Positions 5,861 through 40,159 of a DNA stretch of 43,282 bases are shown here, piece by piece. Source of the stretch: Acidimicrobiia bacterium (GTDB taxonomy: Bacteria > Acidobacteriota > Vicinamibacteria > Vicinamibacterales > UBA2999); contig VFYY01000012.1 of assembly GCA_016871375.1 (NCBI GenBank), positions 1-43,282 on the forward strand. The letters are read 5' to 3'. The notes beneath the pieces are model-generated. The model did not search any database. It was given only the letters and a program-made list of their open reading frames with translations, and was not told the DNA's origin. Position 1 is the stretch's first letter; every line of letters starts with the position of its first letter. A program made the position numbers and the translations under genes.

Positions 5861-5947
5861 GATTTGCGATTTGCGATTTGTGATTTGTGATTTCAAATCA
5901 CAAATCAAAGATCACAAATCACAAATCACAAATCACAAATCACGAAT
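5861..5947 (+). repeat. heptad repeat block with internal dyad, GATTTGT/CAAATCA
   Basis: Four 7-base units GATTTG(C/T) (5861-5888) and a partial one run into seven inverted units of type CAAATCA (5894-5942; one reads AAGATCA). The two halves can pair into a long imperfect hairpin. The block occupies the whole yceD-rpmF spacer and no Shine-Dalgarno sequence is left before the rpmF ATG. Confidence 0.9.
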
Positions 5948-6130
5948 ATGCCGAATCCGAAACGTAGACATTCGAAGACGCGGACCTCGAAGCGCCGCAC
6001 GCACGACGCGCTGCGGCCGGCCACGACCGGCCTCTGCCCGCAGTGCCACGAGCCGAAGGCGCCGCATCGCATCTGCCCGCACTGCGGCTACTACAAGTCG
6101 CGACAGGTCCGTCCCGTCGATGAAGAATGA
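5948..6130 (+). CDS. rpmF: 50S ribosomal protein L32
   Basis: 60 residues. Basic N-terminus MPNPKRRHSKTRTSKRRTHDAL and a four-Cys zinc knuckle (CPQC at 30-33, CPHC at 43-46) define the zinc-binding form of L32. The position between yceD and plsX is the classical bacterial order. The upstream 80 bases are AT-rich heptads with no obvious ribosome site, so initiation must rely on coupling, on low structure, or on a transcript starting inside the block. Confidence 0.97.
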   Translation: MPNPKRRHSKTRTSKRRTHDALRPATTGLCPQCHEPKAPHRICPHCGYYKSRQVRPVDEE

Positions 6131-6132
6131 CA

Positions 6133-6222
6133 TGTGTGATTTGTGATTTGTGAATTGTGATTTGTGATCGGAAATCACAGACAGTGAATCGCAAATCACA
6201 AATCGCAAATCGCAAATCGCAG
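6133..6222 (+). repeat. second heptad block with dyad, between rpmF and plsX
   Basis: Units GATTTGT, GATTTGT, GAATTGT, GATTTGT lead into the inverted set AAATCAC, AAATCGC repeated up to the base before the plsX start codon. Same unit and same tandem-then-inverted design as the block at 5861-5947, but diverged in copy number and in the central part. Confidence 0.88.
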
Positions 6223-7221
6223 ATGGTGACGATCGCCGTCGACGCGATGGGCGGCGATCATGCGCCCGCCGCGGTCGTTGACGGGGCCGTGGCAGCCGCG
6301 CGTCACCTCGCCATCCAGCTTGCGCTCGTCGGCCGCACGGCCGATCTCGAGGCGGCGCTGTCCTCGCATCACGACTGGCGCCAGCTCGGCCTCCGCATCG
6401 TCGACGCGCCGGACGTGATCGGCATGGGGGACTCCGCCGCGTCGGTGCGGAGGCGCAAGGGGGCGTCGGTCCGCGTCGCGGCGGACCTCGTGGCCGCGCG
6501 TGAGGCTGCCGCGTTCGTGAGCGCCGGCCATACCGGCGCGACCGTCATGGCCGCGCATGCCGCGTTCGGGCTCATTCGCGGCGTGGATCGTCCGGCGCTG
6601 GCCACGACCATCCCCACACGCGACACGCCGGCCGTGCTCCTCGACTCGGGCGCCAGCGTCGAGTGCCGCCCGCATCACCTGCTGCAGTTCGCGGTCATGG
6701 GCAGCGTCTACGCGCGCGTGGCGCTCGGCATCGAGCGGCCGCGGGTCGGCCTGCTGTCGATTGGCGAGGAAGAGACGAAGGGCAACGAGCTGACGCGCGA
6801 GGCGCATCAGTTATTCAAAGCGCTTGCCCTCCGCAGCCCTGGCGAAGGAGGGCTCAACTTCATCGGCAACGTCGAGGGGCGCGAGATCTACAGCGGCCGC
6901 GCGGACGTCATCGTGTGCGACGGCTTCACCGGCAACGTCGTGCTCAAGACGAGCGAGGGGCTCGTCGAGCTGTTCGACGCCGCGCTGGGCGAGGACCTCG
7001 ACAAGGCCTTCCGCGCGCGGATCGACTATGCGGAGTACGGCGGCGCGCCGCTGCTCGGCGTCGCGGGCCTGGTCATCGTCGGCCACGGCCGGTCGTCCGC
7101 CAGGGCGGTGCGCAACGCGATCGCGCTCGCCTTCCGCTTCGCTTCCACCGATGTCCTTCAGCGCGTCGAGCAGGAGATCGCCGCCGCCGGCGTGATGACC
7201 GGCCGGGCGCCGCATCAGTGA
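6223..7221 (+). CDS. plsX: phosphate acyltransferase PlsX
   Basis: 332 residues. Makes acyl-phosphate from acyl-ACP for phospholipid synthesis. IAVDAMGGDHAP at the N-terminus, VSAGHTGATVMAA, the IGEEETKGNEL segment, FIGNVEGREIYSG and VIVCDGFTGNVVLKTSEG are all PlsX landmarks. An upstream in-frame ATG at 6157 would translate the heptad repeat, so the ATG at 6223, directly before the first strand, is preferred; GTG at 6226 is also possible. Residues 202-211 (ALRSPGEGG) between the KGNEL helix and FIGNVEG are extra compared with the family and are encoded by a palindrome (6826-6853). The stop overlaps fabD by 4 bases. Confidence 0.95.
   Translation: MVTIAVDAMGGDHAPAAVVDGAVAAARHLAIQLALVGRTADLEAALSSHHDWRQLGLRIVDAPDVIGMGDSAASVRRRKGASVRVAADLVAAREAAAFVSAGHTGATVMAAHAAFGLIRGVDRPALATTIPTRDTPAVLLDSGASVECRPHHLLQFAVMGSVYARVALGIERPRVGLLSIGEEETKGNELTREAHQLFKALALRSPGEGGLNFIGNVEGREIYSGRADVIVCDGFTGNVVLKTSEGLVELFDAALGEDLDKAFRARIDYAEYGGAPLLGVAGLVIVGHGRSSARAVRNAIALAFRFASTDVLQRVEQEIAAAGVMTGRAPHQ
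6826..6853 (+). repeat. palindromic element inside plsX
   Basis: Seven-base perfect arms GCCCTCC and GGAGGGC enclose a 14-base loop (GCAGCCCTGGCGAA). It is read in frame as ALRSPGEGG at a loop where family members go straight from the Lys-Ala end of a helix to NFIGNVEG. Confidence 0.6.
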
Positions 7222-8147
7222 TCGCATTCCTCTTCCCGGGACAGGGTTCGCAGAAGGTCGGGATGGGAAAGGACCTCGTGGAGGCCTTCCCGGAAGCGCG
7301 CCGGACCTTCGAGGAGGCCGACGCCGCGTTCGGCGGCCCGCTGTCGGGGCTGTGCTTCGAGGGGCCCGAGGATCAGCTCATGCTGACCGAGCACACGCAG
7401 CCGGCGATCCTGACCGTGAGTACCGCGGCGGCGCGCGTGCTCGCGTCGAAGGGGATCACCCCCGCGTTGGTGGCCGGGCACAGCCTCGGCGAATACTCGG
7501 CGCACGTGACGGCGGGCACGTTCCCGTTCGAGGAAGCCGTGCGGGTGGTCCGCCGGCGCGGGCGCTACATGCAGGAAGCCGTGCCCGTGGGGCAGGGCGC
7601 CATGGCCGCGATTCTCGGCCTCGACGCCGCGCTCGTGAAGCAGGCGTGCGAGGAAGCCGCCAACGGCGAGGTCGTGAGTCCGGCCAACATCAACAGCGCC
7701 GATCAGGTCGTCATCGCCGGCGCGACCGCCGCCGTGCAGCGGGCCTCCGAGCGCGCGAAGGCGCTGGGCGCCAGGCGCGCGATCCCGCTGCCCGTCAGCG
7801 CCCCCTTCCACTGCGCGATGATGAAGCCGGCCGAGGATCGGCTCGCGCCGGAGCTGCGGGCGCTTGCCGCGCTGACCCCGCGCGTGCCCGTCGTGGCGAA
7901 CGTGGACGCCGAGCCGAAGCGCGACGCCGCGGCGTCCATCGAGGCGCTGGTGAAGCAGGTGTCGGCGCCCGTGCTCTGGGAGCAGGTCGTGCGGCGCCTT
8001 GCGTCGGAAGGCGTCACCACGTATGTTGAAGTGGGCCCCGGACGGGTGCTCAGCGGTCTCGTCAAGAAGATCCACAAGGACGCGCGCGTCTTCAGTTTCG
8101 GGGCGCCGGAGGACCTGGCGCCGCTCGAGGACGCCTTGCATGTTTAG
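7218..8147 (+). CDS. fabD: malonyl-CoA:ACP transacylase FabD
   Basis: 309 residues. Loads malonyl onto ACP. GQGSQKVGMG near the N-terminus, nucleophile Ser89 in GHSLGEYSA, general-base His198 in PVSAPFHCAMM, and the C-terminal YVEVGPGRVLSGLVKK. The GTG start at 7218 overlaps the plsX TGA by 4 bases (GTGA), the usual sign of translational coupling. The 3' end overlaps fabG by 8 bases. Confidence 0.96.
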   Translation: MIAFLFPGQGSQKVGMGKDLVEAFPEARRTFEEADAAFGGPLSGLCFEGPEDQLMLTEHTQPAILTVSTAAARVLASKGITPALVAGHSLGEYSAHVTAGTFPFEEAVRVVRRRGRYMQEAVPVGQGAMAAILGLDAALVKQACEEAANGEVVSPANINSADQVVIAGATAAVQRASERAKALGARRAIPLPVSAPFHCAMMKPAEDRLAPELRALAALTPRVPVVANVDAEPKRDAAASIEALVKQVSAPVLWEQVVRRLASEGVTTYVEVGPGRVLSGLVKKIHKDARVFSFGAPEDLAPLEDALHV

Positions 8148-8880
8148 CCTCAAGGACAAGGTCACCATCGTCACCGGCGCCTCGCGCGGCATCGGCCGGG
8201 AAATCGCCGCGCAGATGGCATCGCGCGGGGCGGTCGTCGTTGCCGCGGCGCGCGGCGACAACGCGGCCGGCACCGTGGCGGCGATTACCCAAGCCGGCGG
8301 CCGCGCCGAGGTCGCCTCCCTCGACGTCACCGACGAGGGTTCCGTCGCCGCGATGGTGAGCGGCACGCTCGAGCGCCACGGCCGCATCGACGTGCTGGTG
8401 AACAACGCCGGCATCGCCCGCGACCAGCTGATGCTGCGCATGAAGCGCGACGACTGGGACCAGGTGCTGGCCACGAATCTGACGTCCGCGTTCACCTGTG
8501 CGCAGGCCGTCCTCAAGCCGATGGTGAAGCAGCGGAGCGGCCGTATCATCAGCATCAGCTCGGTCGTCGGCCAGATGGGGAACGCGGGGCAGGCCAACTA
8601 CGCCGCCTCGAAGGCCGGGCTCATCGGGTTCAGCAAGGCGCTCGCCCGCGAGGTGGCCTCGCGCAGCATCACCGTGAACGTCGTCGCGCCCGGTTTCATC
8701 GAAACGGACATGACGAAGGAGCTGCTGGCGAAGGCGCAGGGCGACTGGGCGTCCCAGATTCCGCTCGGACGGGCCGGCACGACGGCGGATGTCGCCGCCG
8801 CGGTGTGCTTTCTCGCCTCGGATGAGGCGTCGTATATTACAGGGCAGGTACTTGCCGTCAACGGCGGCATGTACATGTGA
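8140..8880 (+). CDS. fabG: 3-oxoacyl-ACP reductase FabG
   Basis: 246 residues, an NADPH-dependent short-chain dehydrogenase. Cofactor motif TGASRGIG at 12-19, NNAG at 88-91, catalytic Ser140, Tyr154 and Lys158 (YAASK) with Asn113. C-terminal [20 protein letters not shown] is typical FabG. The ATG at 8140 lies inside the last codons of fabD; the overlap suggests coupling. The context between fabD and acpP makes the role in fatty acid elongation secure. Confidence 0.96.
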
Positions 8881-8891
8881 ACGGAGGAGAG

Positions 8892-9134
8892 ATGGCGGTT
8901 GCAGACAAGGTGAAGAGCATCATCGTCGAGCAGCTCGGCGTGGATGAAGAGGAAGTGACCCCGGACGCCTCGTTCGTGGACGACCTCGGCGCCGACTCGC
9001 TCGACACGGTGGAGCTCGTCATGGCGTTCGAGGAGGAGTTCGGGATCGAGATTCCGGACGAGGACGCCGAGAAAATCACCCGCGTCAAGGAAGCGATCGA
9101 TTACATCGAGGCGCACGCCAAGGCCAAGAAGTAG
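8892..9134 (+). CDS. acpP: acyl carrier protein
   Basis: 80 residues, acidic. The 4'-phosphopantetheine site is Ser36 in [19 protein letters not shown]. The ATG at 8892 is preceded by a strong GGAGGAG (8883-8889), the best ribosome site in this operon, consistent with the high demand for ACP. An in-frame GTG at 8877 overlapping the fabG stop is less likely. Confidence 0.97.
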
Positions 9135-9143
9135 CGAGGGGAC

Positions 9144-10385: not shown

Positions 10386-11164
10386 AGATCGCCGTCTGCA
10401 TCAAACAGGTTCCCACCCGCGAGTGGCAGCCCCGGCTCCGCGACGACAAGACCTGGATCCGCGAGGCTGACGTCAGCTACGAGATGAACGAGCCCGACGC
10501 CTATGCCCTCGAGGAGGCGCTGCGCCTCCGCGAGAAGCACGGCGGCGAGGTGGTCGTCTGCTCGGCGGGCCCGGCCCGCGTGCAGCAGGTCATTCGCGAG
10601 GCGCTGGCGCGCGGCGCCGACCGCGCCATTCACGTCGAGGACGACAGCCTGGCCGCGGCGGACGCGTTCGTGTCGGCAGGCGCGCTCGCCTCCGCGATGG
10701 CGGACGAGACGTTCGACCTCGTGCTCACCGGCCTCCAGTCCGACGACCAGGGCCACGGCCAGACGGGCGTCGTGCTGGCGGAGCGTCTCGGCATCCCGCA
10801 CTCCACGATCATCATGGAGGTGCAGATCGACCCTTCGACAAGCTCAGGGCAAGCGGGGAGCCTGCGCGTGAAGCGCGAGCTCGAAGGCGGCTGGTTCCAG
10901 TGGATTGCGATGCCGCTGCCGGCGCTGCTGACGATCCAGAGCGGCATCAACCAGCTGCGCTACGCCACGCTCAAGGGCATCATGGCGGCGAAGAAGAAAG
11001 AGATCAGGAAAGCGTCTCTGCCCGCGGGGCTCCAGCCGTCGCAGCAGATCGTGGCGCTGGCGATGCCGGCGCGCAGCAAGCAGACGCACCTGATCGGCGG
11101 GTCGGCGGGTGAGGCGGCCAAGGAACTGGTCCGCCTGCTGCGTGACGAGGCGCGCGCCCTGTGA
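10382..11164 (+). CDS. etfB: electron transfer flavoprotein beta subunit
   Basis: 260 residues. With EtfA forms the FAD/AMP heterodimer that accepts electrons from acyl-CoA dehydrogenases. [52 protein letters not shown] (nucleotide site) and [27 protein letters not shown] are EtfB landmarks. Residues ~150-159 ([10 protein letters not shown]) in the hairpin before [10 protein letters not shown] are not part of the family pattern and come from a short repeat (10831-10857). The GTG start overlaps the fabF stop by 4 bases, so synthesis and oxidation genes share one transcript. Confidence 0.94.
10831..10857 (+). repeat. TTCGACAAGCTCAGG-type repeat inside etfB
   Basis: CCCTTCGACAAGCTCAGGG with a GCAAGCGGGG tail, an imperfect palindrome with CCCT/AGGG ends. 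From general experience this word recurs across many environmental genomes and gives peptides such as STSSGQA. Here it is read as PSTSSGQAG. Confidence 0.7.
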
Positions 11165-11217
11165 CACGAGCGCGTCAGTCCGAACATCCCGCGCTGGTGT
11201 CACAAGAAGACACTGTT

Positions 11218-11252
11218 AATCACAGCGCGGCTTTTGATTGCGGAGCCCCGCT

Positions 11253-11258
<6 letters not shown>
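11218..11258 (+). repeat. 14-bp inverted repeat covering the etfA start
   Basis: Arms at 11218-11231 (AATCACAGCGCGGC) and 11245-11258 (GCCCCGCTGTGATT) pair with one mismatch around a 13-base loop. One candidate etfA start (TTG 11238) lies in the loop and the other (GTG 11253) in the right arm, so the RNA hairpin could mask initiation. There is no U tract, so it is not a standard terminator. Confidence 0.7.
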
Positions 11259-12215
<957 letters not shown>

Positions 12216-12245: not shown

Positions 12246-13910
12246 ATGACTCGCGAGACGCTCGAGGTCGATGTCCTGATTGTTGGCGGCGGGCCGGCGG
12301 GCCTCTCGGCCGCGATTCGTCTCGCGCAATTGAATCAGGGTGCTGGGGCGACGCATGCGTCGCCCGTCTCGGTCGCGGTGCTCGAGAAAGCGCGGGAACC
12401 GGGCGCACACGAGCTCTCCGGCGCCATCCTCGACCCCTCGGCGCTGCGCGATCTGATCCCCGATTTCAGGGAGAAGGGCGCCCCGCTCGAGAGCGACGTG
12501 CACGGCGAGCGCGTGTACTTCCTCACGCAGCAGGGGAAGGTGCCGTTCCCGATCATCCCGCCACCGCTGCGCAACCACGGCAACTACGTCATCTCCATCA
12601 ACAAGTTCGTGCAGTGGCTCGCGCAGCAGGCGGAAGCCGGCGGCGTGGACTTCTTCAGCGGCTTCCCCGGCCAGGACGTACTTATGGAGGGTGTGCGCGT
12701 CATCGGCGTGCGCACCGGCGACAAGGGGATCAGCCGCCACGGCCAACAGAAGCCGACGTTCGAGCCCGGCGTGGACATCGCCGCGAAGGTGACGATTTTC
12801 TGCGACGGCGTTCGCGGCAACCTGACCAAGGAGCTGCTGCGCCGGCTGCAGCTCGGGAAGGACCGGCAGCCGGAACAGTTCGCGCTCGGCATCAAGGAGC
12901 TGTGGGAGCTGCCGAAGGACCGCGTCGCGCCGGGGACCGTGATGCACACGATGGGCTACCCGCTGCGGCACGAGGAGTTCGGCGGGGCCTTCATCTACGG
13001 GCTGCCGGACGGACTGCTCTCGCTCGGCTTCGTTGTCGGGCTGGACTACAAGGACCCGCTCTTCGACCCGCACATGGCGTTCAACCGCTTCAAGCAGCAC
13101 CCCTTCACCCGGGCGCTGCTCGACGGCGGGCAGATGATCCGCTACGGCGCCAAGGCGCTTCCCGAGGGCGGCTGGAACACGATTCCGCGGCCGTACATGG
13201 ACGGCGGCCTCATCGCCGGCGATGCTGGGGGCTTCATGAACTCGGTGCGGCTGAAGGGCATCCACCTCGCCATGCGCACCGGGATGCTGGCCGCCGAAAC
13301 GGCGTACGACGCCGTACGCGCCGGAGATACCTCCGCCGCGGCGCTCAGCCGCTACCAGCTGAAGATCGACGCCGGCGCCGTGCGCGCGGAGCTCTATCCT
13401 GTGCGCGGCGTGCATCAGGCATTCGGCTCCGGGCTGCTTGCCGGTGTCGTCGCCGCGGGCCTCTCCGTGGTGACGCGCGGCCTCGTCCCCGGGGATCTCC
13501 ACGGCGAACCGGGCCACGAGCGGATGCAGACGCTTCGCGACTACTCCGGCGCCGCGCCGGGTACGATGACGACGAGTAACCTGACGACCGCCGATCGCAC
13601 GCTGACGTTCGACAAGGTCACCAACGTGCACTACTCGGGCACCGCGCACGACGAGGATCAGCCCGCGCATCTCCTGGTGCACACCGACGTCTGCAGCTCG
13701 ATCTGCGGCCCCGAGTACGGCCACCCGTGCACGCGCTTCTGTCCGGCGAACGTCTACGAGATCGCGCACGACGCCGACGGGACGCCGCGCCTGCAGATCA
13801 ACGCGTCGAACTGCGTGCACTGCAAGACGTGCGACATCATGGATCCCTACCAGGCGATCACGTGGGTACCGCCTGAAGGGGGCGGCGGTCCTCAGTACAG
13901 CGGAATGTGA
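12246..13910 (+). CDS. electron transfer flavoprotein:ubiquinone oxidoreductase
   Basis: 554 residues, an FAD and 4Fe-4S membrane-associated enzyme that passes electrons from ETF to the quinone pool. N-terminal FAD fold [19 protein letters not shown] (10-28), [17 protein letters not shown], and the C-terminal cluster domain with Cys499 (FCPANVYE) and Cys523, Cys526, Cys529 ([13 protein letters not shown]), ending [12 protein letters not shown] as in mitochondrial ETFDH. Residues 34-40 (GATHASP) lie in the loop between the first helix and second strand and are encoded by a perfect palindrome. Follows etfA by 30 bases, so the three genes form one electron-transfer unit. The start ATG 12246 fits the family. 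Confidence 0.95.
12346..12365 (+). repeat. perfect 20-bp palindrome, copy inside the ETF-QO gene
   Basis: Same 20 bases as 12217-12236. Read in frame as GATHASP, residues 34-40, in a loop of variable length in this family. Confidence 0.95.
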
Positions 13911-13911
13911 C

Positions 13912-13967
13912 GATTTGTGATTTGCGATTTGCGATTTGGGTTTTGGGATTTGGGATTTGGGATTTGT
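13912..13967 (+). repeat. eight tandem heptads GATTTGN
   Basis: GATTTGT, GATTTGC twice, GATTTGG, GTTTTGG, GATTTGG twice, GATTTGT. Unlike the two earlier blocks there is no inverted half. It starts one base after the ETF-QO stop, and its last unit supplies the GTG start of the next gene. Confidence 0.92.
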
Positions 13968-14643: not shown

Positions 14644-14709
14644 GGCGTGTGGGGCCGGTGGGGCGTGTTAGCTCACTCGCCTCACCCGCCCTACTCGCCT
14701 CACGTGCCC
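14644..14709 (+). repeat. nonamer repeat block, tandem then inverted
   Basis: Three 9-base units GGCGTGTGG, GGCCGGTGG, GGCGTGTTA are followed by GC and four units of the opposite sense (TCACTCGCC, TCACCCGCC, CTACTCGCC, TCACGTGCC). The block fills the convergent spacer exactly, from the TAA of the acyltransferase gene to the stop codon of the SEC-C gene. Confidence 0.85.
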
Positions 14710-14986: not shown

Positions 14987-15040
14987 GGCGCCCCGTAAAG
15001 GGGCGCCCTACGCGTGTAGGGCGGGCCTTTACGGCCCGCC
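14987..15040 (+). repeat. pair of palindromic elements back to back
   Basis: First hairpin: arms GGCGCCCC / GGGGCGCC (14987-15007) with loop GTAAA. Second: arms GGCGGGCC / GGCCCGCC (15020-15040) with loop TTTAC. They are joined by a third inverted repeat GCCCTAC-GCGT-GTAGGGC (15005-15022). The loop of the second supplies the TAA stop of marR (15031-15029). Confidence 0.93.
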
Positions 15041-15891: not shown

Positions 15892-15921
15892 GGAACGGCG
15901 TCAAGCCGTTCCGGTAGACAG
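15892..15921 (+). repeat. GGAACGGC hairpin element, copy 1
   Basis: Perfect 8-bp arms GGAACGGC / GCCGTTCC around GTCAA, followed by a CGGTAGACAG-like tail. Same design as 17553-17582. The two copies differ by a compensating pair (G-C to C-G) in the stem. Confidence 0.9.
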
Positions 15922-15928: not shown

Positions 15929-17023
15929 ATGCCAGCACTGCTCCTCGCGCTTCTGCTCGTGGCGGCGTCCGCGTCGGCCCAGACGCGGGCGACGCTCGAC
16001 ATCTACGTCGTCGACGTCGAGGGCGGCAACGCCACGCTGTTCGTGGCGCCGTCGGGCGAGTCGCTGCTCATCGACACCGGCAACGGCGGGGCCGGCGCGG
16101 TTCGCGACGCCGAGCGCATCGTGGCTGCGGTCAAGGACGCCGGTCTGCAGCGCATCGACCACCTGATCACCACGCACTACCACGGCGACCACTTCGGCGG
16201 CATGTCGGAGGTCGCGGCACGCGTGCCGATCGGGCACTTCATCGACCACGGCCCGAACGTACAGCCGGCCGCCGCGGCAGACACGTTCCTGCAGAAGGTC
16301 TATCCGGAGCTCTACGCCAAGGGCAGGCACACGGTCGTCAAGCCGGGCGACCGGGTGGCGATGACGGGGCTCGACATCCGCATCGTGTCGTCGGCGGGCG
16401 AGGTGACGCGTACGTCGCTGCCGGGGGCCGGATCGCGGAACCCGTATTGCGCCAACGTGAAGCCGCAGGCGCCGGACCCGACCGAGAATGCGCAGTCGGT
16501 CGGTACCGTCATCAGCTTCGGCCGCTTCCGCGCCGTGCACCTCGGCGACCTGACGTGGAACAAGGAAATGGACCTGATGTGCCCGACCAATCGCCTGGGG
16601 CAGGCGGATCTCTTCGTCGTCACGCATCACGGCCAGCCGGTGTCGAACAACCCCGCGCTCGTGCACGCACTCGCGCCGCGCGTGGCGGTGATGAACAACG
16701 GCACGCGGAAGGGCGGCCAGCCCGACGCCATGAAGGTGCTCTTCTCGTCGCCCGGGCTCGAGGACCTCTGGCAGATCCACTTCTCGCTGCTGAGCGGCCA
16801 GGAGTACACGGTGCCGGGCGCGTTCATCGCGAACCTCGTCGACGAGCAGCCCGAGACGATGCCGATTGCGGCGATGACGCCGCCGCCGGCAGGTCCGAAC
16901 GCGCCGGCTCCGCCCGCGCACAACGGGACGGCGTACTGGATCAAGGTCTCCGCGCGCCAGGACGGCTCGTTCACCGTCACGAACGCGCGCAACGGATTTA
17001 CAAAGACATACTCCGCTCGGTAG
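15929..17023 (+). CDS. secreted metallo-beta-lactamase-fold hydrolase (ComEC C-terminal-like)
   Basis: 364 residues. Signal peptide MPALLLALLLVAASASAQ. The mature protein opens with LDIYVVDVEGGNATLFVAPSGESLLIDTG, the pattern of ComEC/Rec2-like MBL domains, then metal motif TTHYHGDHFGG (His83, His85, Asp87, His88), and VHLGDLTWNKEM and VTHHGQPVSNNP as later metal-site regions. There are no membrane segments, so this is a stand-alone periplasmic hydrolase rather than a DNA-uptake channel; substrate unknown. The C-terminus (AYWIKVSARQDGSFTVTNARNGFTKTY) forms an extra beta module. Its TAG stop is the first codon of a palindromic repeat. Confidence 0.85.
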   Translation: MPALLLALLLVAASASAQTRATLDIYVVDVEGGNATLFVAPSGESLLIDTGNGGAGAVRDAERIVAAVKDAGLQRIDHLITTHYHGDHFGGMSEVAARVPIGHFIDHGPNVQPAAAADTFLQKVYPELYAKGRHTVVKPGDRVAMTGLDIRIVSSAGEVTRTSLPGAGSRNPYCANVKPQAPDPTENAQSVGTVISFGRFRAVHLGDLTWNKEMDLMCPTNRLGQADLFVVTHHGQPVSNNPALVHALAPRVAVMNNGTRKGGQPDAMKVLFSSPGLEDLWQIHFSLLSGQEYTVPGAFIANLVDEQPETMPIAAMTPPPAGPNAPAPPAHNGTAYWIKVSARQDGSFTVTNARNGFTKTYSAR

Positions 17024-17044
17024 GGCGGGTCTTTACGGCCCGCC
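17021..17044 (+). repeat. palindromic element between convergent genes, supplying both stop codons
   Basis: Arms GGCGGGTC / GGCCCGCC (17024-17044) around TTTAC, preceded by TAG. It is a variant of 15020-15040. TAG (17021-17023) ends the upstream gene on the plus strand, and TTA (17033-17035) in the loop is the TAA of the minus-strand gene. Confidence 0.93.
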
Positions 17045-17552: not shown

Positions 17553-17582
17553 GGAACGCCGCCAAGGCGTTCCGGTAGATAG
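17553..17582 (+). repeat. GGAACGCC hairpin element, copy 2
   Basis: Perfect 8-bp arms GGAACGCC / GGCGTTCC around GCCAA with a CGGTAGATAG tail. It lies in the divergent gap of the DUF456 and deacetylase-like genes and ends 1-2 bases before the GTG start at 17584. Confidence 0.9.
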
Positions 17583-18623: not shown

Positions 18624-21191
18624 GTGTCTGACTATCGTCCGCAGGACCTCGACAAGAAGTGGCAGCAGCGCTGGAGCGCGTCGAGGGCCTTTGAGGTCAC
18701 CGCCGATCCCGCGCGCCCGAAGTTCTATTGCCTCGAGATGTTCGCGTACCCGTCGGGGCACGCGCACGTCGGACACGTCCGCAACTACATCATCGGCGAC
18801 GTGATGGCGCGCATGAAGCGGATGCGCGGCTACAACGTGCTGCATCCGTTCGGCTGGGACGCCTTCGGCCTGCCTGCGGAGAACGCGGCCATCAAGGGCG
18901 GCATCCATCCCGAGGTCTCCACGCGCAGCAACATCGCGCACATGAAGGGGCAGCTCCAGCGGCTCGGCATCAGCTACGCCTGGGAGCGCGAGCTCGCCAC
19001 CTGCGACCCCGAGTACTACAAGTGGAACCAGTGGCTCTTCATCCGCATGTTCGAGAAGGGCCTCGCCTACCGCAGGCGCTCGTCGGTGAACTGGTGCCCG
19101 AGCTGCCAGACCGTGCTCGCCAACGAGCAGGTCGTTGACGGCGGCTGCTGGCGCTGCGGCACGCCCGTCGAGACGCGCGACCTGGAGCAGTGGTTCTTCC
19201 GCATCACCGCCTACGCCGACGAGCTGCTGGACGCGACCACGCAGCTGACGGCCTGGCCCGAGAAGGTTCTGACGATGCAGCAGAACTGGATCGGCCGGTC
19301 CGAGGGCGCGCGCGTGAAGTTCCCGCTCGAACGCGGAACCGGGAACACGGAACCCGGAACCGACAGCATTGAAGTCTTCACCACGCGCATCGACACGATT
19401 TTCGGCGCCACGTTCGTGCTGCTCGGGCCCGAGCACCCGCTCGTCGCGACGTTCGCGGAGACGTCCTCCGACCCCGCGGGCTTCCGCAGGAAGGCGCAGG
19501 ACTTCCGGCTGCAGGACAAGGCGGCGCGCGTCAGCGGTGAAATCGAGAAGCAGGGATTCGACACCGGCCGCCGCGCGATCAACCCGTTCACGAAGGAACC
19601 GGTCCCGATCTGGGTGGCGAACTTCGTCCTCGGCGACTACGGCACCGGCGCGGTCATGGGCGTCCCCGCGCACGACCAGCGCGACTTCGAGTTCGCCCGC
19701 AAGTTCGGCCTCCCGATCCGCATCGTCGTCACGCCGGACGGGGAGCCGGCGGGCGGCGCCGACGCGATGAAGGAATCGGCGTCCAACTACGGGACGCTGG
19801 TGAACTCGGGCGAGTTCGACGGGCTCACCTCCGAAGACGCGTTGAAGCGGATGACGGCCGTCGCCAAGGAGCGCGGCATCGGCGAGGGCACGGTCCAGTA
19901 CCGGCTGAAGGACTGGGGCATCTCGCGGCAGCGCTACTGGGGCACGCCGATTCCGATGATCTACTGCGAGAAGGACGGCATCGTCCCCGTCCCCGACGAT
20001 CAGCTGCCCGTGGAGCTGCCCAGGATCGCGCAGTTCACCGGCCGCGGCGACTCGCCGCTGGCGCAGGTGCCGGAGTTCGTGAACGTGCGCTGCCCGAAGT
20101 GCGGCGGTCCCGCCCGTCGCGAGACCGACACGATGGACACGTTCGTCGACTCGTCGTGGTACTTCTACCGGTTCGCCGATCCGCGGAACGACAGGATGCC
20201 GTTCGACCCGGCGGCGGTGAAGTACTGGCTGCCGGTGGACTTCTACAGCGGCGGCGTCGAGCACGCGATCCTGCACCTGATCTACTCGCGGTTCTTCGCG
20301 CGCGTCTTCCGCGACCTGGGCCTCGTGGAGCACAGCGAGCCATTCACGCAGCTCCTCACGCAGGGGATGGTGCTGAAGGATGGCAACGTCATGTCGAAGT
20401 CCAAGGGCAACGTCGTCGATCCGGACACGATGCTCCAGAAGTCCGGCGCCGACGCGCTGCGGCTCTACGTGATGTTCGTGGCGCCACCGGAGAAGGAAGT
20501 CGAATGGACCGACGCGGGCCTGGACGGAAGCTTCCGCTTCCTGGCGCGCGTCTGGCGGCTCGTGGACCACTGGGCCGAGACGATCGGCGGCGACGGCATC
20601 GGCAGCCCTGACGACTGTCCCGGCCTCAGCGCCGACGAGCGCGCCGTGCGCCGCAAGACGCACGACACGATCCGCCGCGTCACCGTGGATATCGAGCAGC
20701 GGCAGCAGCTCAACACCGCGGTCTCCGCGATGATGGAGCTCGTCAACGAGCTCTACGCCTTCAGCGAGCAGACGCTGACCGGCGCCCCCGGGCACCGCGA
20801 TGACGACGACCCGGCGCATGCGGGGGAGGCGGAGCGTGCCGAGACGATCTGCGTCATGCGCGAGGCGATCGAGGCGTTGATGCTGATGCTCTCGCCGTTC
20901 GCGCCCCACGCGGCCGAAGAAATGTGGGAGAAGCTGGGACACGAGACCAGCCTCGTCGTCGCGCCGTGGCCGGAGTTCAAGGCCGCCGTCGCCAGGGCGG
21001 AAGAAATCGTCATCCCCGTTCAGGTGAACGGCAAGGTCCGCAGCCGGCTGACCGTACCGGCGGAGACGTCCGAGAGCGAGCTGGAGCGGCTGGCGCGGGC
21101 CGACGCGGCTGTGCAGGCGCACACCGCGGGCAAGACGGTGAAGAAGGTCGTGGTGGCGAAGGGAAGGCTGGTGTCGATTGTCGTTCAGTAA
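18624..21191 (+). CDS. leuS: leucyl-tRNA synthetase
   Basis: 855 residues. HIGH-like HAHVGH (46-51) after YPSG, the zinc-like module [24 protein letters not shown]1 editing domain with [13 protein letters not shown] and [14 protein letters not shown], and the KMSKS loop VMSKSKGN (590-594). The C-terminus ends with [21 protein letters not shown] and [14 protein letters not shown]. The GTG at 18624 gives [17 protein letters not shown], family-like, and follows a -10 box by 7 bases. Residues ~238-247 ([10 protein letters not shown]) at the entry to the editing domain are encoded by four tandem heptads and extend the usual loop. Overlaps lptE by 14 bases. Confidence 0.96.
19335..19362 (+). repeat. 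four tandem heptads GGAACCG inside leuS
   Basis: GGAACCG, GGAACAC, GGAACCC, GGAACCG, each 7 bases. Read in frame as GTGNTEPGT just before SIEVFTTR, at the linker into the editing domain. Confidence 0.85.
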
Positions 21192-24625: not shown

Positions 24626-24703
24626 AGGGTCAGACCCTTGATACGGCTTGTTCCGGGGTCTGACCCCGGAACGGAGCGACTCAGGGGTCTGACCCCAAAT
24701 TGG
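24626..24703 (+). repeat. three GGGTC-TGACCC palindromes
   Basis: AGGGTCAGACCCT (24626-24638), a longer one with TTCCGGGGTC / GACCCCGGAA arms (24651-24671), and GGGGTCTGACCCC (24684-24696) followed by AAATTGG. The last ends directly at the TAA (24704) of the lipoprotein gene. The remaining 24567-24625 part of this gap shows nothing recognisable. This word is familiar from regions near REP-type transposases, but none is in this window. Confidence 0.85.
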
Positions 24704-25684: not shown

Positions 25685-28847
<3,163 letters not shown>

Positions 28848-28858
<11 letters not shown>

Positions 28859-36529: not shown

Positions 36530-37506
36530 TACTGCATCTCGCTGCAGAACGGGCAGCGGCCGGCGCGGGCGGGGAGCGGCTTGCGGCAGTGCCAGCAGAA
36601 GCCGGCCTGCGGGGTCTCGCGCGCCTTGAGGCGCGACTGGATGTCGCTCGGCGACTCCTGGCCGCCGGCGGTCGCCGCGGCGACCGCGCGGCCGGCCTTT
36701 TTCGGCGCTGGCTCGCGGGCGGCGAGGATGTCGTTCAGCAGGTCCGACGCGCGCTGGTACCGCGTGGTCAGGTCGGCCTCGAGCGCCTTGAGGACGATGT
36801 CGTTGATGGCTCTCGGGATGCGGCTGTTCTTCAGGCGAGGGGAACTGATCAGCTCACCCCGCATCAGCTTTTCGATGTCGGCCGGCGCGGGGGTGTCGTA
36901 CGGCAGCGTCCCCGTCAGCATCTGGTACATCGTCACGCCGACCGAGTAGACGTCGCTGGCGAAGACCGCCTTCCCGTAGAACTGCTCGGGCGCCATGTAC
37001 GGAGGGCTGCCGATCACGGTGGTGCCGTGGGCGGCCACCTCGAGGAAGCGCGAGGTGCCGAAGTCGGTGACCTTGAGCAGGCCGGTCTCGGAGACCAGCA
37101 TGTTGCCGGGCCGCAGGTCGCGGTGCAGGATGCCCGCGCGATGCGCGTGGTCGATCGCGTTGCACATCTGGCAGGTGAAGTCGAGCGCGCGCGTGACGTC
37201 GAGCGCCCCCTCGCGCATGATGATGTGCTCGAGCGTCTCGCCCGGCACGTACTCCATCACGATGAAGAAGACGTCCTCCTGCTTCTCGGCCGTGAGCACG
37301 GTGACGATGTTCGGGTGGCTCATCGAGGCGAGGAGCCGCGGCTCCTTCAGCATCTCGCTGAAGTCGAGGTTCTGCTTGTGGGGGACCTTGAGCGCGACCT
37401 TCTTGTGGATCCAGGTGTCCTCCGCCAGGAAGACCGTGCCGAAGCCGCCACTGCCGAGAGGTGACAGAATGCGGTACTTTCCGATGGTCTGCCCACGGAA
37501 GAACAT
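36529..37506 (-). CDS. eukaryotic-type Ser/Thr protein kinase with C-terminal zinc ribbon
   Basis: 325 residues. Gly-rich loop LGSGGFGTV (18-25), Lys40 (VALKVPH), Glu56, catalytic loop HRDLRPGN (128-135) with Asp130, DFG at 148-150, and MAPEQF. In place of the usual HRDLKP Lys there is Arg132, a change also seen in some bacterial kinases. The C-terminal CWHC (304-307) and CPFC (318-321) form a four-Cys zinc ribbon; no membrane segment, so cytoplasmic. The ATG at 37506 follows a TATACT box by about 15 bases. Divergent from rsmE, with 25 bases between starts. It overlaps the downstream glycosidase gene by one base, so they are probably co-expressed. Confidence 0.92.
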   Translation of the reverse strand: MFFRGQTIGKYRILSPLGSGGFGTVFLAEDTWIHKKVALKVPHKQNLDFSEMLKEPRLLASMSHPNIVTVLTAEKQEDVFFIVMEYVPGETLEHIIMREGALDVTRALDFTCQMCNAIDHAHRAGILHRDLRPGNMLVSETGLLKVTDFGTSRFLEVAAHGTTVIGSPPYMAPEQFYGKAVFASDVYSVGVTMYQMLTGTLPYDTPAPADIEKLMRGELISSPRLKNSRIPRAINDIVLKALEADLTTRYQRASDLLNDILAAREPAPKKAGRAVAAATAGGQESPSDIQSRLKARETPQAGFCWHCRKPLPARAGRCPFCSEMQ

Positions 37507-37521
37507 GTATGCGGTGGCGAG

Positions 37522-37527
37522 AGTATA
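37522..37527 (-). promoter_or_regulatory. -10 box TATACT for the kinase-glycosidase operon
   Basis: TATACT on the minus strand lies 15 bases before the ATG at 37506, giving a leader of about 9 bases. Similar spacing is seen for marR. Confidence 0.45.
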
Positions 37528-37531
37528 GCAG

Positions 37532-38296
37532 GTGACCGCGCGATTCTTTGCGCCCGGTGCGGAGCGTTCCGGCGAGCGCGTCGCGCTGCCCGGCGAGGAG
37601 GCACAGCATCTCACGCGCGTGCTGCGGCTCGGGGCCGGCGCGTCGATCCGCGTCTTCAACGGCCGCGGCCACGAGTTCGACGCGGTCGTGGAGACAGCGG
37701 CGAAGAGCGGCGTGCAGGTTGTGATCGGTGCCGCGCGCGAGCCGGCCGCGCGCGAGCCCGGCGTCGCCGTGACGCTCGCGCAGGCGGTGCTCAAGGGCGA
37801 CAAGATGGACGACGTCGTCCGCGACGCGGTGATGATGGGCGTCGCGGCGGTGCAGCCGATCGTGACCGCTCGCAGCGACGTGACGCTGGCGTCGGTGCAG
37901 CGGGGCACGCGCGTGGAGCGGTGGGGGCGGATCGCGGTCTCGTCGGCCAAGCAGTGCGGCCGGGCGACGGTGCCCGCGATCCTGGAGCCGCGTGCGCTGG
38001 AGTCGGTGCTTGCCGCGTTGTCGTCGATGACGCTGCCGGCGCCCGGGCTGATGTTCGTCGAGCCCGGAGTCCTTCCGCCGGAAGGCGGAAGCCACAGCGC
38101 GCTCGGTGACCTGGACTCCGCGCCGCCGCGGGAGACGACGGTCATCCTCGGCCCCGAGGGCGGTTGGGAGCCCGGCGAGGTCGAGCGCGCGTCCGCTGCC
38201 TGCCGGCTGGTGACGCTCGCGGCGCCCACGCTGCGCGCCGACGCGATGGCGCTCGTCGCGCTCACCGCGCTCTTCACGCGCTGGGGCGAGCTCTGA
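37532..38296 (+). CDS. rsmE: 16S rRNA (uracil1498-N3)-methyltransferase RsmE
   Basis: 254 residues, SPOUT-class methyltransferase with a PUA-like N-terminus (RFFAPGAERSGERVALPGEEAQHLTRVLRLGAG). VTLAQAVLKGDKMDDVVRDAVMMGVAAVQPIVTARS, SSAKQCGRATVPAI and the SAM knot VILGPEGGWEPGEVERA with TLRADAMALVALTAL are family landmarks. Residues ~179-189 (GVLPPEGGSHS) before the knot are encoded by a hairpin repeat and have no family counterpart. The GTG at 37532 is close to the divergent kinase promoter. The stop is 2 bases from the likely end of a convergent, broken gene. Confidence 0.93.
   Translation: MTARFFAPGAERSGERVALPGEEAQHLTRVLRLGAGASIRVFNGRGHEFDAVVETAAKSGVQVVIGAAREPAAREPGVAVTLAQAVLKGDKMDDVVRDAVMMGVAAVQPIVTARSDVTLASVQRGTRVERWGRIAVSSAKQCGRATVPAILEPRALESVLAALSSMTLPAPGLMFVEPGVLPPEGGSHSALGDLDSAPPRETTVILGPEGGWEPGEVERASAACRLVTLAAPTLRADAMALVALTALFTRWGEL
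38067..38096 (+). repeat. CTTCCGCC hairpin inside rsmE
   Basis: Perfect 8-bp arms CTTCCGCC (38072-38079) and GGCGGAAG (38084-38091) around GGAA, with flanking GGAGTC and CCACAG. Read in frame as GVLPPEGGSHS. Confidence 0.9.
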
Positions 38297-38298
38297 GA

Positions 38299-39165
38299 TT
38301 AGGTCGCCTCGACGTCCGGCGCAGGAGATGGTGCTGGCGTCTTCTTCCTGGGCGTGAACGCCGTCGGCCGGCATCAGGCGATCGAGAATCTTCACGCCGC
38401 TCCACTGCACCGCGCAGCCAACGCCGATCGCTGTCCAGAAGTCATTCACGTTCACGGTGACCGGGAACTGCGAGGCGGCCATCTTCGACAGGAGAATCGT
38501 GCCGGTCGTGCTCAGCAGCAGCGCCCCTGCCGCACCCAGCGCCAGGCCGCCGATGGCTGCCAGCGTGGAACGAGCCGGATGTGTGCGGCCCGACCACCGC
38601 CGTATCTCCCGGATCGCGTAGGCCAGGAGTCCGCCGATCGCGGCGCCGAGCAGCAGGACCGGCACGGGCACGGCAATGGGCATCGTGGCCGTGTGCATGC
38701 TGGTGCCGTAGACGTTGGCGTCCAGCTGATACGCGCCCGTCTGCTCTTCTCGCGTCGCGGTGGTCCAGTACTTGGCCGCGGCGACGACCTCGTAGTCGCC
38801 CGGCCAGAAGAACACGAACTGCAGCTGGGACCACGCCTGTCCCAGAGGGCCGACGTTTGTCTGCGTCCCGGGCGTCCAGAGGGTGGTGTATGTCTGGCCG
38901 GGTCCAATCACGATGACGTTGTCGCGGCGGCTGTTGTTCTTGCTCTCCGTGTGCTCGGTCGGGAAAAACGCCTCGTAACTGAACATCTCCCCGCGCTGGC
39001 CCTCGAGCTCCAGCGGCAGCGACAGCGACAAGTCTGATTCCCGCAGATAGAGGGGACCGTCGGAGACGTTCCGGATGATGCCGACGATGCCCAGCCCGCC
39101 GCCGGCGACGAGGCGCGACGCAGTCGGTCTCAGTTCAATCGAGATCGGGGGGGCCGTGGACCTGG
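38299..39165 (-). pseudogene. broken membrane-protein gene (no start, 3' frameshift)
   Basis: The frame from about 39165 down reads as convincing protein: ISIELRPTASRLVAGGGLGIVGIIRNVSDGPLYLRES, FFWPGDYEVVAAAKYW, then membrane segments MPIAVPVPVLLLGAAIGGLLAYAI, IGGLALGAAGALLLSTTGTILL and VNDFWTAIGVGCAVQWSG. It has no ATG, GTG or TTG before the conserved part, and a run of seven G (39147-39153) sits at the prmA end. At 38365-38378 the frame must shift to reach a natural end, PTAFTPRKKTPAPSPAPDVEAT, whose TAA (38301-38299) lies 2 bases from the rsmE stop; without the shift the frame runs antisense through rsmE. Either a decayed gene or base errors. Function not recognised. Confidence 0.6.
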
Positions 39166-40110
39166 GCCAGAACCGGCCCGTTTGCGCACGATGTCCGCGG
39201 TACTCGTCGCCGTGACGCAGAGCCACTCGTCTTCGGCAGTCCGGCTGCGGACCTCGAAGCCGTCGTACGCGGCGAGCACATCGCGCTCCTCGTGCGTCAT
39301 GAAGCCGCTCAGCACGAGCGTGCCGTCCGGCGCAGTGACCGCCTGCAGCGCGGCGGCAGTCTGCACGAGCAGTCCGCCCGTCAGGTTCGCGATGACGACG
39401 TCGAACCGGCCGAGATTCGCCGCGCGCAGATCGACCGTCTGGAGCCGCACGTGCACGCCCTCGTTGAGCCGGACGTTCTCCGTCGCGGATTCGATCGCAT
39501 CCGGGTCGTCGTCTATGGCGACGACGGCTGCCGCCCCGAGGCGGCTGGCGGCGATGGCAAGGACGCCGGAGCCGGTGCCGACGTCGAGCACTCGCGTGCC
39601 GCGCAGGTCGAGCGCCTGCAGCGCGGCCAGGCACAGGCGCGTGGTCGCATGATGCCCGGTGCCGAAGCCCATCGAGGGCTGGATGATGATGGTGATGGGC
39701 CGACTAAAGTCGGCCCCTACTCTAGGGGCCGACTTTGTTCGGCCCGGGTCCCGATCCGTAGGGGCCGACTTTGTTCGGCTCGGGTCCCGATCCGTAGGGG
39801 CCGACTTTAGTCGGCCCGTCTCCCACGGCGGGGCGACGATGATGTGGCCGACCTGGACGGCGCGCAGGCTGGCCTGCGACCGCGCGGCCCAGTCCTCGTC
39901 GGGGACGTCGAGCGCCGTGAAGGTCAGCTCGGGAAACTGAGAGGGGAGCGCCGCCAGCGCCGCGTCGCGGTCGGCCGCCGCGTGGAAATAGACGCGCCCG
40001 GCGTCTTCGTCCACCGCCGCAACGTCGTAATCGAGAAGTGCCGCGAGAACGAGATCGGAAAGACGAGAAGCCTCGAGAGCGGGTGAAGGACGCGGAGTCT
40101 TGGCTACCAC
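39130..40110 (-). CDS. prmA: ribosomal protein L11 methyltransferase PrmA
   Basis: 326 residues. SAM motif VLDVGTGSGVLAIAASRLGA (174-193), IIIQPSMGFGTGHHATTRLCLAAL before it, VIANLTGGLL as the NPPY-like motif, and a C-terminal end TAEDEWLCVTATS. The N-terminal substrate-recognition domain is shorter than in E. coli. Residues ~98-138 (LKSAPTDRDPSRTKSAPTDRD and on to GADFSRP) are an insertion between IIVAPPWE and ITIIIQPSMGFG, encoded by four GGGCCGAC palindromes in a 36-base tandem array (39697-39820). The GTG start at 40110 lies in the first unit of a CTACCAC heptad block. The end GSGPGPRPPRSRLN is atypical and lies beside a seven-G run. Confidence 0.9.
   Translation of the reverse strand: MVAKTPRPSPALEASRLSDLVLAALLDYDVAAVDEDAGRVYFHAAADRDAALAALPSQFPELTFTALDVPDEDWAARSQASLRAVQVGHIIVAPPWETGRLKSAPTDRDPSRTKSAPTDRDPGRTKSAPRVGADFSRPITIIIQPSMGFGTGHHATTRLCLAALQALDLRGTRVLDVGTGSGVLAIAASRLGAAAVVAIDDDPDAIESATENVRLNEGVHVRLQTVDLRAANLGRFDVVIANLTGGLLVQTAAALQAVTAPDGTLVLSGFMTHEERDVLAAYDGFEVRSRTAEDEWLCVTATSTADIVRKRAGSGPGPRPPRSRLN
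39697..39820 (-). repeat. four palindromes, 36-bp tandem array inside prmA
   Basis: GGGCCGACT-type hairpins at 39697-39716, 39726-39745, 39762-39780 (imperfect) and 39798-39817. Units 39725-39760 and 39761-39796 are near-identical 36-base direct repeats (one or two differences), each a hairpin plus a GGGTCCCGATCCGTA linker; a third begins at 39797. 36 is a multiple of three, so copy number can change without breaking the frame. The encoded peptide unit is SAPTDRDP(S/G)RTK. Confidence 0.93.
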
Positions 40111-40159
40111 CTGCGACCTACCACCTACGACCTACCACCTACCACCTACGACCTACGAC
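40104..40159 (+). repeat. eight tandem heptads CTAC(C/G)AC
   Basis: CTACCAC, CTGCGAC, CTACCAC, CTACGAC, CTACCAC twice, CTACGAC twice. It fills the dnaJ-prmA gap. On the minus strand the next unit's TAG is the dnaJ stop and the last unit's GTG is the prmA start. The GGTGG/TAGGT units are the only possible ribosome site for prmA. Confidence 0.93.

What the first reader, a model, noticed from the sequence alone, without database searches (positions are those of the whole stretch)
5861..40159. A multi-family system of structured repeats embedded in and around housekeeping genes
Within 35 kb there are about a dozen families of short palindromes or 7/9-base tandem units. At least six conserved genes (plsX, etfB, ETF-QO, leuS, rsmE, prmA) carry a copy in frame at loop positions, and spacers are filled from stop codon to start codon. 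In-frame palindromic insertion in housekeeping genes is known for the Rickettsia palindromic elements, and heptanucleotide repeats for cyanobacteria. A genome with many families tolerated inside so many essential genes would be new or under-described. No transposase (for example a REP-associated tyrosine transposase) is in the window, so the mobiliser would act in trans. Strong preference for gene boundaries and loops suggests selection or a targeted mechanism.
Basis: partly seen in the sequence, partly recalled or inferred. Interest (0 to 1): 0.85.

Follow-up and report, generated by a model that had tools for sequence, protein, structure and literature searches.

The report
Mobile palindromes and seven-base hairpin repeats
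This acidobacterium carries two kinds of tiny dispersed DNA repeats, a well-known palindromic kind and a less understood kind built from seven-base units, and both occur between genes and even, in frame, inside conserved genes.

Summary
The window lies in a 4.2 Mb acidobacterial genome (probably Vicinamibacterales) with about a dozen short-repeat families. Alignments show extra residues at the repeat in all six named genes; relatives carry other insertions at the etfB, leuS and prmA sites. Two systems are mixed. (1) GTAG-tagged palindromes are ordinary REPs: the genome has four Y1 transposase genes, one flanked by the commonest REP (402 hits), one by the GGGGTCTGACCCC family seen in the window. 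In-frame REPs are already described. (2) The tandem heptamers ("H7" here) are the newer part. There are several families per genome, each a constant 5-6 base core plus 1-2 free bases at a pitch of seven. In the GATTTG family 120 of 149 variants fall in one column; two-armed copies are hairpins of one polarity (16 against 1), with preferred end phases. Orthologous junctions in relatives carry other heptamers or none. No H7 array lies in 33 transposase loci, so its mobiliser is unknown. Targeting of gene boundaries is not needed; tolerance in a compact genome explains most placement. Known kin are the GGGNATC-type repeats of Xanthomonas and Nostoc. Verdict: real, mostly known in kind, with a new anatomy for the heptamers.

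The parts
5860..5947 (.). H7 hairpin, GATTTGN arm then NCAAATC arm, filling yceD stop (5857-5859) to rpmF start (5948)
   Evidence: folds as a long stem
6132..6221 (.). H7 hairpin, same family, between rpmF stop and plsX start
13911..13966 (+). H7 direct array, GATTTG T/C units then GATTTGG units, from ETF-QO stop to the start of a DUF374 gene
19329..19360 (+). H7 array GAACNCG-type (GGTTCCN family) in frame in leuS, within the editing domain match
40104..40162 (-). H7 array GTAGGTN; its TAG is the stop codon of the minus-strand gene at 40160-41314 (dnaJ-like, named by eye), and it runs into the prmA start region
6822..6854 (+). palindrome CCCTCCGCAGCCCTGGCGAAGGAGGG, 24-nt in-frame insertion in plsX
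10831..10856 (+). CCCTTCGACAAGCTCAGGG element, 24-nt in-frame insertion in etfB; similar residues at the same place in L070, L072, L075, L081
12217..12236 (.). REP-b GGGCGACGCATGCGTCGCCC with CTAC on its 3' side (GTAG on the minus strand), between etfA and ETF-QO
12346..12365 (.). REP-b inside ETF-QO, in frame, no tag
14672..14703 (+). degenerate 9-base tandem CTCACTCGC
14987..15007 (.). tagged palindrome GGCGCCCC..GGGGCGCC
15020..15040 (.). REP-c GTAG GGCGGGCC..GGCCCGCC
17020..17044 (.). REP-c-like copy GTAGGGCGGGTCTTTACGGCCCGCC
   Evidence: seen in the sequence
15892..15912 (.). REP-d palindrome GGAACGGC..GCCGTTCC with GTAG on its 3' side
17553..17573 (.). REP-d palindrome GGAACGCC..GGCGTTCC with GTAG on its 3' side
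24627..24696 (.). REP-e cluster, three GGGTCTGACCC-type palindromes; same family flanks the Y1 transposase gene on contig 139
29348..29377 (.). REP-a palindrome GTAAGGGCCGAC..GTCGGCCCTTAC
38072..38091 (+). palindrome CTTCCGCCGGAAGGCGGAAG inside rsmE, in frame
39697..39817 (.). REP-a cluster inside prmA: three units at frame-keeping 36-nt spacing plus one facing them

Best explanation
Two unrelated systems of small dispersed repeats share one compact genome. First, GTAG-tagged REP palindromes, copied in trans by Y1 (RAYT) transposases encoded elsewhere in the genome. Second, tandem-heptamer elements ('H7'): short polar hairpins whose arms are runs of a 5-6 base core spaced by 1-2 free bases, so that the pitch is always 7; the two arms face each other in one orientation and the outer ends start at a preferred phase of the unit; a good part of the copies have one arm only. 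A genome holds several H7 families, each in tens of places, and the set of cores changes between species. Both kinds land widely; copies survive where they do no harm: between stop and start codons, and in protein loops when the length keeps the frame. Shown: anatomy, dispersal, in-frame insertions, transposase-REP pairing by position for two families, species turnover. Inferred: that the Y1 proteins move the REPs (proposed for such pairs elsewhere, not tested here), and that H7 moves as a hairpin; its mobiliser is not identified. My probability is about 0.9 for the REP part and about 0.6 for H7 being mobile hairpins rather than local satellites.
For: REPs: 402 hits (up to 3 mismatches) of GTAGTGTCCGGCTTTAGCCGGAC, control 0, many as inverted pairs 49 bases apart; Y1 gene on contig 59 flanked by six such or near-identical hairpins on one side and one on the other, that on contig 139 by CCGGGGTCTGACCCCGG on both sides. 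H7 free position: 50 GATTTGN arrays, variants per column 0, 2, 5, 7, 9, 6, 120 of 238-267 (712 kb, part of it picked for arrays). Polarity, clusters of 4 or more words: GATTTG 16 in one order, 1 in the other, 14 one-armed; GTTGG 13 v 1, 5 one-armed, 1 mixed; G014 GGCAGC 10 v 0, 5 one-armed, 1 mixed. End phase: GGCAGCN 9 of 11 the same, GTTGGGN 8 of 12, GATTTGN p = 1.4e-4, n = 44. Exactly three full cores in 15 of 24 GTTGG chains and 10 of 14 GGCAGC chains. Placement: 40 of 44 arrays intergenic in 87.5% coding DNA, 2 in genes, 2 at stretch ends. In-frame insertions; REP units in prmA are 36 nt apart, those beside the contig-59 transposase 37. Turnover: 11 of 121 orthologous junctions in relatives carry a period-7 array, none with a window core by my reading; 53 of 121 gaps are under 25 nt.
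Against: No H7 mobiliser found. Free-base strings are not shared between GATTTG copies beyond shuffles except one pair of 54 nt (null tops 40-47); a second pair (window 5861, L164) shares an unusual unit but its 39-nt match is within the null. With the looser threshold of 3 words, GGCAGC clusters of G000 run the other way (9 v 3, plus 6 mixed; that hexamer is also likely in coding DNA of this composition), against 3 v 0 with 4 words. Phase is not fixed for GTAGGTN (n = 7, p = 0.53), marginal for GGTTCCN at the 5' end (n = 7, p = 0.051) and not significant at the GATTTGN 3' end (p = 0.083). Unit number is not fixed for GATTTG (2-7 cores) or in G014 (2-12). Per-array concentration of variants in one column is modest: 30 of 49 v 21.4 expected here, 66 of 121 v 47.7 elsewhere, single arrays significant in 2 of 13 and 3 of 25. 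Some arrays grow by local duplication, e.g. 21-nt blocks in L298. Over all 245 strong hairpins of 443 kb the GTAG tag is only modestly enriched: 14 and 17 on the two sides v 8-12 for four control words. REP-a, b and c have no proven transposase partner. No close strain was available to see an insertion.
Confidence: 0.62

Rival explanations
1. H7 arrays are ordinary microsatellites born locally by polymerase slippage at a 7-base pitch, kept only outside genes.
For: Heptamer excess in bacteria has been ascribed to polymerase slippage (PMC4692102 section 16, read, citing earlier work). Copy number varies, 2 to 7 cores for GATTTG; block duplication is visible in L298; in GATTTGN arrays the free bases differ between arrays more than chance (53 equal neighbours of 90 v 36.6).
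Against: The same core recurs in tens of places; polarity and end phase; within arrays the free bases are not in runs (26 equal neighbours v 25.6 after within-array shuffling in G014 GGCAGCN; 53 v 50.1 in GATTTGN), where unit duplication would give runs.
Confidence: 0.22
2. H7 arrays are selected functional elements: RNA hairpins, G-quadruplexes or arrays of protein sites, whose cores are conserved by use while the spacer base drifts.
For: Six constant columns beside one free column; strong predicted stems for the two two-armed window copies (-36 to -48 kcal/mol over both strands); similar Xanthomonas repeats form quadruplexes in vitro (PMC4692102 abstract and section 16).
Against: Turnover of sites and cores between relatives; in-frame copies inside leuS and in a relative's prmA; no orientation bias relative to genes; the other two intergenic window arrays hardly fold (-9.1 and 0.0 on the plus strand, -0.7 and -4.7 on the minus strand); GATTTGT and GATTTGC have no G runs; N bases of facing arms are no more complementary than shuffled (8 of 16 v 8.4; another pairing rule gave 9 of 34 v 14.2).
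Confidence: 0.15
3. One Y1-transposase-driven system moves both palindromes and heptamers.
For: Both are dispersed, inverted-pair, stop-adjacent elements; 7 of 46 intergenic H7 clusters have a GTAG hairpin within 40 nt v 3.5 expected.
Against: 0 period-7 arrays in 33 Y1 loci (104 kb; 33 of 65 matches, at most about 1.5 kb each side) where 5-8 would be expected from 0.46-0.75 per 10 kb. The positive control is weak: GTAG hairpins in 6 of 33 loci, 1.72 per 10 kb v 0.49 and 1.61 in background stretches. G031 has 60 GTTGGNN hits (control 0) and no Y1 match, but is 78% complete; G015, 98% complete, has 32 hits against 14 in the control and no Y1 match.
Confidence: 0.1
4. Targeted insertion at stop/start junctions.
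For: Ends abut stops more than random placement in the same gap: 15 of 33 v 10.3 in the unpicked sample, 34 of 75 v 22.8 when stretches picked for arrays are added.
Against: Starts are not enriched, 7 of 29 v 8.9 and 13 of 61 v 16.7; the expectation leaves out overlaps that the observed counts include; several array ends carry TAG themselves and so make the stop.
Confidence: 0.1

Closest known systems
GTAG-tagged REPs and their RAYT transposases (PMC3733652, abstract and section 15 read; REPINs, PMC3116915, listing only)
   Same: GTAG tag beside a short palindrome, hundreds of copies, inverted pairs, transposase gene flanked by the same palindrome, stop codons supplied by the tag, in-frame copies inside genes.
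   Different: Several REP families side by side in one acidobacterial genome; units in prmA keep a 36-nt spacing. Differences of degree.
GGGAATC / GGGGA(C/T)T heptamer repeats of Xanthomonas and Nostoc (PMC4692102, abstract and sections 3, 10, 13, 16 read)
   Same: Seven-base pitch, degenerate positions, four units commonest, convergent inverted pairs, mostly intergenic, overlap with stop codons. A relative (L227) has GGGATTN units inside prmA.
   Different: Here several families per genome, some not G-rich; polarity and end phase measured; other cores at the same junctions in relatives; in-frame copies in conserved genes.
TAACTGA repeats of Beggiatoaceae (PMC4679880, passages) and (GATAGRA)n of Chloroflexus (PMC6749651, passages)
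   Same: Heptamer direct repeats; TAACTGA is intergenic and partly stop-overlapping; GATAGRA again has one degenerate base.
   Different: One family each in the passages seen; for TAACTGA only one indirect repeat is reported.
Rickettsia palindromic elements (recalled, and as mentioned in PMC3733652 section 15)
   Same: Palindromes inserted in frame in conserved genes.
   Different: Other lineage; sequences not compared here.

Membership tests
GTAG REP / RAYT | short dispersed palindrome in high copy | tested here: met
   402 hits v 0 for the commonest family; REP-a 22, REP-b 22 sites, REP-e 9 in 843 kb v 0
GTAG REP / RAYT | GTAG at the foot of the stem | tested here: met
   5 of the 7 window hairpins of the REP-a, b, c type listed have it; REP-d has it on the other side; plsX, etfB, rsmE elements lack it; over all 245 hairpins the excess is modest (14 and 17 v 8-12)
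GTAG REP / RAYT | Y1 transposase gene flanked by the same palindrome | tested here: met
   2 of the 4 genes: contig 59 and contig 139
GTAG REP / RAYT | partner transposase for REP-a, b, c specifically | tested here: inconclusive
   contig 205 flank contains GTAGGGCGGG, close to REP-c; contig 78 none seen
GTAG REP / RAYT | H7 sits beside Y1 genes as REPs do | tested here: inconclusive
   0 H7 arrays in 33 of 65 Y1 loci, 5-8 expected; but GTAG hairpins themselves in only 6 of 33
heptamer repeats of the GGGAATC kind | 7-base pitch, intergenic, about four units, inverted pairs | tested here: met
   the unit number mode holds for GTTGG and GGCAGC in G000, less for GATTTG and GTAGGT
heptamer repeats of the GGGAATC kind | G tracts able to form quadruplexes | tested here: not met
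   by sequence only: GATTTGT/C, and most GGTCAAN and GGTTCCN units, lack GGG tracts; GTTGGGN and GATTTGG units do have them; folding not measured
Rickettsia palindromic elements | sequence relation to RPEs | not tested
   no comparison with RPE sequences was run

The most novel reading that the evidence does not exclude
H7 elements are a separate class of mobile hairpin, made by an unknown activity that lays down the same 5-6 base word every seven bases with 1-2 untemplated or unread bases between, for example by repeated template jumping of a polymerase. That would explain near-perfect cores beside a spacer base that is already diverse, a pitch that is always 7, and different words in different species.
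Probability: 0.13. Interest if true: 0.85.

Novelty: new variant of a known kind. Interest (0 to 1): 0.58.

Why it matters
Heptamer repeats are reported from several phyla without a mechanism. A genome with many parallel families, one polarity, preferred ends and one free base per unit turns a vague 'slippage' story into testable alternatives. The in-frame copies give natural insertion-tolerance data for PrmA, EtfB, LeuS and others, and such residues can pass for ordinary sequence in protein databases.

Tried and rejected
Rfam on the window: no match at gathering scores. Reverse transcriptase as an H7 writer: one RVT_1 gene in the genome, type not determined, no link found. A DGR-like adenine-mutagenesis idea was dropped by reasoning, since several cores contain A on both strands. 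Copying of one hairpin arm from the other: not supported, N bases of facing arms are not complementary beyond shuffles. Core-seeded arrays for the free-column test were set aside because the seed forces four invariant columns; the unseeded test is used. Congener comparison: H7 sparse in those 20 stretches (0-3 each); at one junction four congeners carry GGGGCCG, CTCGGGG, CTCGGGG and another GC-rich sequence, too few to date arrays. The REP-d count used too short a loop limit and was not redone. Structure prediction for EtfB was asked four times and the machine was full; loop position rests on gaps in alignments with solved structures, for EtfB and PlsX only.
Full report
What was checked. The window is contig 12 of a 4,217,311-base genome in 295 contigs, 91.7% complete. 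The best 80 etfB matches kept among named genomes (541 found) are titled Acidobacteria or one of its subgroups except three (two Acidimicrobiia, one Cyanobacteria); L086, L092 and L096 are titled Vicinamibacterales or Vicinamibacteraceae. I take the organism to be a member of Vicinamibacterales, an inference from titles. The whole genome was not available as a file, so statistics use stretches: 443 kb (plus window), 843 kb when one search is added, and about 1.1 Mb when the array-picked set is added.

Period 7 stands out: 44 arrays in 443 kb against 0 after block shuffling, with 0-5 for most other periods, 12 for period 9 and 32 for the harmonic 14; 63 in 843 kb against 0, 10, 8, 27 and 1 for periods 5, 6, 8, 9 and 10. 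Period 9 is a second, weaker peak. The excess is not confined to this clade: 29 period-7 arrays in 451 kb of loci L066-L102 and 24 in 492 kb of L103-L145, titled mostly as other acidobacterial groups, against 8 or fewer for other periods apart from 14. GATTTGN units in threes are hit 277 times in the genome with up to one mismatch and 0 times when read backwards; these hits overlap and are not a count of arrays. The palindrome words of the window recur: 22 hits of GTAGGGGCCGAC, 22 sites of GGCGACGCNNGCGTCGCC, 9 of GGGTCTGACCCC in 843 kb, none in shuffles. The plsX and rsmE words are rare (2 hits each) and the etfB word occurs once in that sample and 5 times in the genome, but in 23 of 57 genomes examined.

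In-frame insertions. The six proteins were aligned with relatives: for PlsX, EtfB and ETF-QO from loci L066-L105, 40 of the 80; for LeuS, RsmE and PrmA from loci; loci without a hit or under 45% identity were dropped, leaving 31, 41, 30, 30, 28 and 21 rows with the window. PlsX has eight residues that none of the other 30 has. EtfB has eight; L066, L067, L070, L072, L075 and L081 have insertions at the same point, several reading PSTGSG or SGQ as the same element would in that frame. ETF-QO has about three; L103 and L105 have a longer, unrelated stretch there. LeuS has several in a loop where L169, L172, L174 and L178 carry other insertions, that of L178 another heptamer. RsmE has four; some relatives have extra residues nearby. 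PrmA has about 33-39 more than relatives without an insertion; in the same loop L227 carries GGGATTN heptamers read as a seven-residue repeat and L228 residues (GADLK) that look like a translated REP. The EtfB and PlsX insertions fall in gaps of alignments with solved homologues. So these are indel-tolerant places hit in more than one lineage, except in PlsX.

The palindromes are REPs. Of seven window hairpins of the REP-a, b, c type, five carry GTAG, the mark of one of the two REP super-families (PMC3733652, abstract and section 15 read); over all 245 strong hairpins in 443 kb the tag is only modestly enriched (14 and 17 on the two sides against 8-12 for control words). The commonest palindrome of this genome, absent from the window, is GTAGTGTCCGGCTTTAGCCGGAC with 402 hits, often in inverted pairs. 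There are four Y1 transposase genes over the Pfam cut-off. One is flanked by that palindrome on both sides; another by CCGGGGTCTGACCCCGG, the family of window 24,627-24,696. A third has GTAGGGCGGG-containing repeats downstream; the fourth shows none. REPs inside genes, including tRNA synthetases and repair genes, and TAG tags acting as stop codons are in that same paper. This half of the finding is known in kind.

The heptamers have a regular anatomy. Pooled over 50 GATTTGN arrays the variants per unit column are 0, 2, 5, 7, 9, 6 and 120. The arrays were found without using the word, but family membership was decided on the six core columns, which favours their constancy, and part of the 712 kb was picked for arrays. 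GTTGG units have two free bases, GGCAGC one; in G014, 28 GGCAGC arrays of up to twelve units carry G 34, C 29, A 28 and T 5 at the free place. Within arrays equal neighbours are no commoner than after within-array shuffling (26 v 25.6; 53 v 50.1), although GATTTG arrays differ from each other in composition (53 v 36.6). Many copies are two facing arms. For GATTTG, GATTTG comes first in 16 clusters and last in 1, with 14 one-armed; for GTTGG the C-rich arm is first in 13 and last in 1; in G014 GGCAGC 10 v 0. With only three words required, GGCAGC in G000 goes the other way, 9 v 3, so its polarity is not settled there. Outer ends begin at a preferred phase: GGCAGCN 9 of 11, GTTGGGN 8 of 12, GATTTGN 18 of 44 at one phase and 11 at the neighbouring one, p = 1.4e-4; GTAGGTN, n = 7, shows none. 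Chains of exactly three full cores make up 15 of 24 for GTTGG and 10 of 14 for GGCAGC, while GATTTG runs from 2 to 7. Core-to-core spans of two-armed elements are 52-71 nt for 13 GTTGG and 59-81 nt for 15 GATTTG elements.

Where they sit. 40 of 44 arrays in the 443-kb sample are intergenic, 2 in genes, 2 at stretch ends, in DNA that my simple gene caller makes 87.5% coding; the caller misses some genes, for example rpmF and alaS. Flanking-gene orientation, 24 co-directional, 7 divergent and 9 convergent, is close to the share of intergenic bases (25.3, 10.4 and 7.5 kb). Array ends lie within 4 nt of a stop in 15 of 33 cases, 10.3 expected for random placement in the same gap, and of a start in 7 of 29, 8.9 expected. 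The stop-to-start filling in the window is mostly what an insertion into a near-zero gap looks like: among 121 orthologous junctions in relatives (loci L066-L105) 53 have gaps under 25 nt and 11 carry a period-7 array, none with a window core by my reading; other periods give 0-3.

What moves H7 is open. No period-7 array lies in 33 Y1 loci totalling 104 kb (33 of 65 matches), against 5-8 expected from background; but GTAG hairpins are in only 6 of these loci, so the test is not strong. Two genomes without a Y1 match hold GTTGGNN repeats, one of them only 78% complete and the other with a high control count. One reverse transcriptase gene exists; nothing links it. Free-base strings are generally not shared between copies. 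A local-slippage origin is disfavoured by polarity, phase and recurrence of one core in many places; a pure selection story by turnover. My best reading is mobile hairpins of unknown mobiliser, later reshaped by local duplication.

Literature. PMC4692102 (abstract and sections 3, 10, 13 and 16 read) describes GGGAATC-type repeats with conserved positions 1-4 and 6, four units commonest, convergent pairs and stop overlap, and says no detailed literature on heptameric repeats was available. PMC4679880 and PMC6749651 were seen as passages. A search for acidobacteria with heptanucleotide gave 0 papers. In the listings for heptamer repeats and for acidobacteria with repetitive extragenic palindromic, and in the texts named above as far as read, I saw nothing that describes the end phase or multi-family heptamers of this clade. 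The library lacks most subscription journals.

Noticed in passing
window 25685-28858 (minus): alaS is uneven in composition: 0.51-0.65 GC in 200-base windows up to 28200, 0.64-0.71 in the N-terminal end; identity to 15 relatives' stretches 67-75% for the first 222 residues and 42-59% for the rest (the N part is usually better conserved anyway). At 1057 aa it seems long. Possibly partial replacement by transfer.
   Followed up: partly
G000 sample, 843 kb: Period-9 arrays form a second excess (27 against 0, 10, 8, 1 for periods 5, 6, 8, 10).
   Followed up: no
L084, etfA to ETF-QO junction: A ten-base unit GGTGCTGAAG repeated several times in tandem and again downstream.
   Followed up: no
G014, e.g. 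L297-L316: A relative with 173 overlapping hits of GGCAGCNGGCAGCNGGCAGC, useful for studying these repeats.
   Followed up: partly
window 39723-39818 against L004 1152-1317: REP units inside prmA are spaced 36 nt (frame kept), those beside the contig-59 transposase 37 nt.
   Followed up: no
L227 prmA (relative G014): About ten GGGATTN-type heptamers in frame, giving a GIRDSGL-like seven-residue repeat; the congeners G027 (L237) and G031 (L239) lack it.
   Followed up: yes
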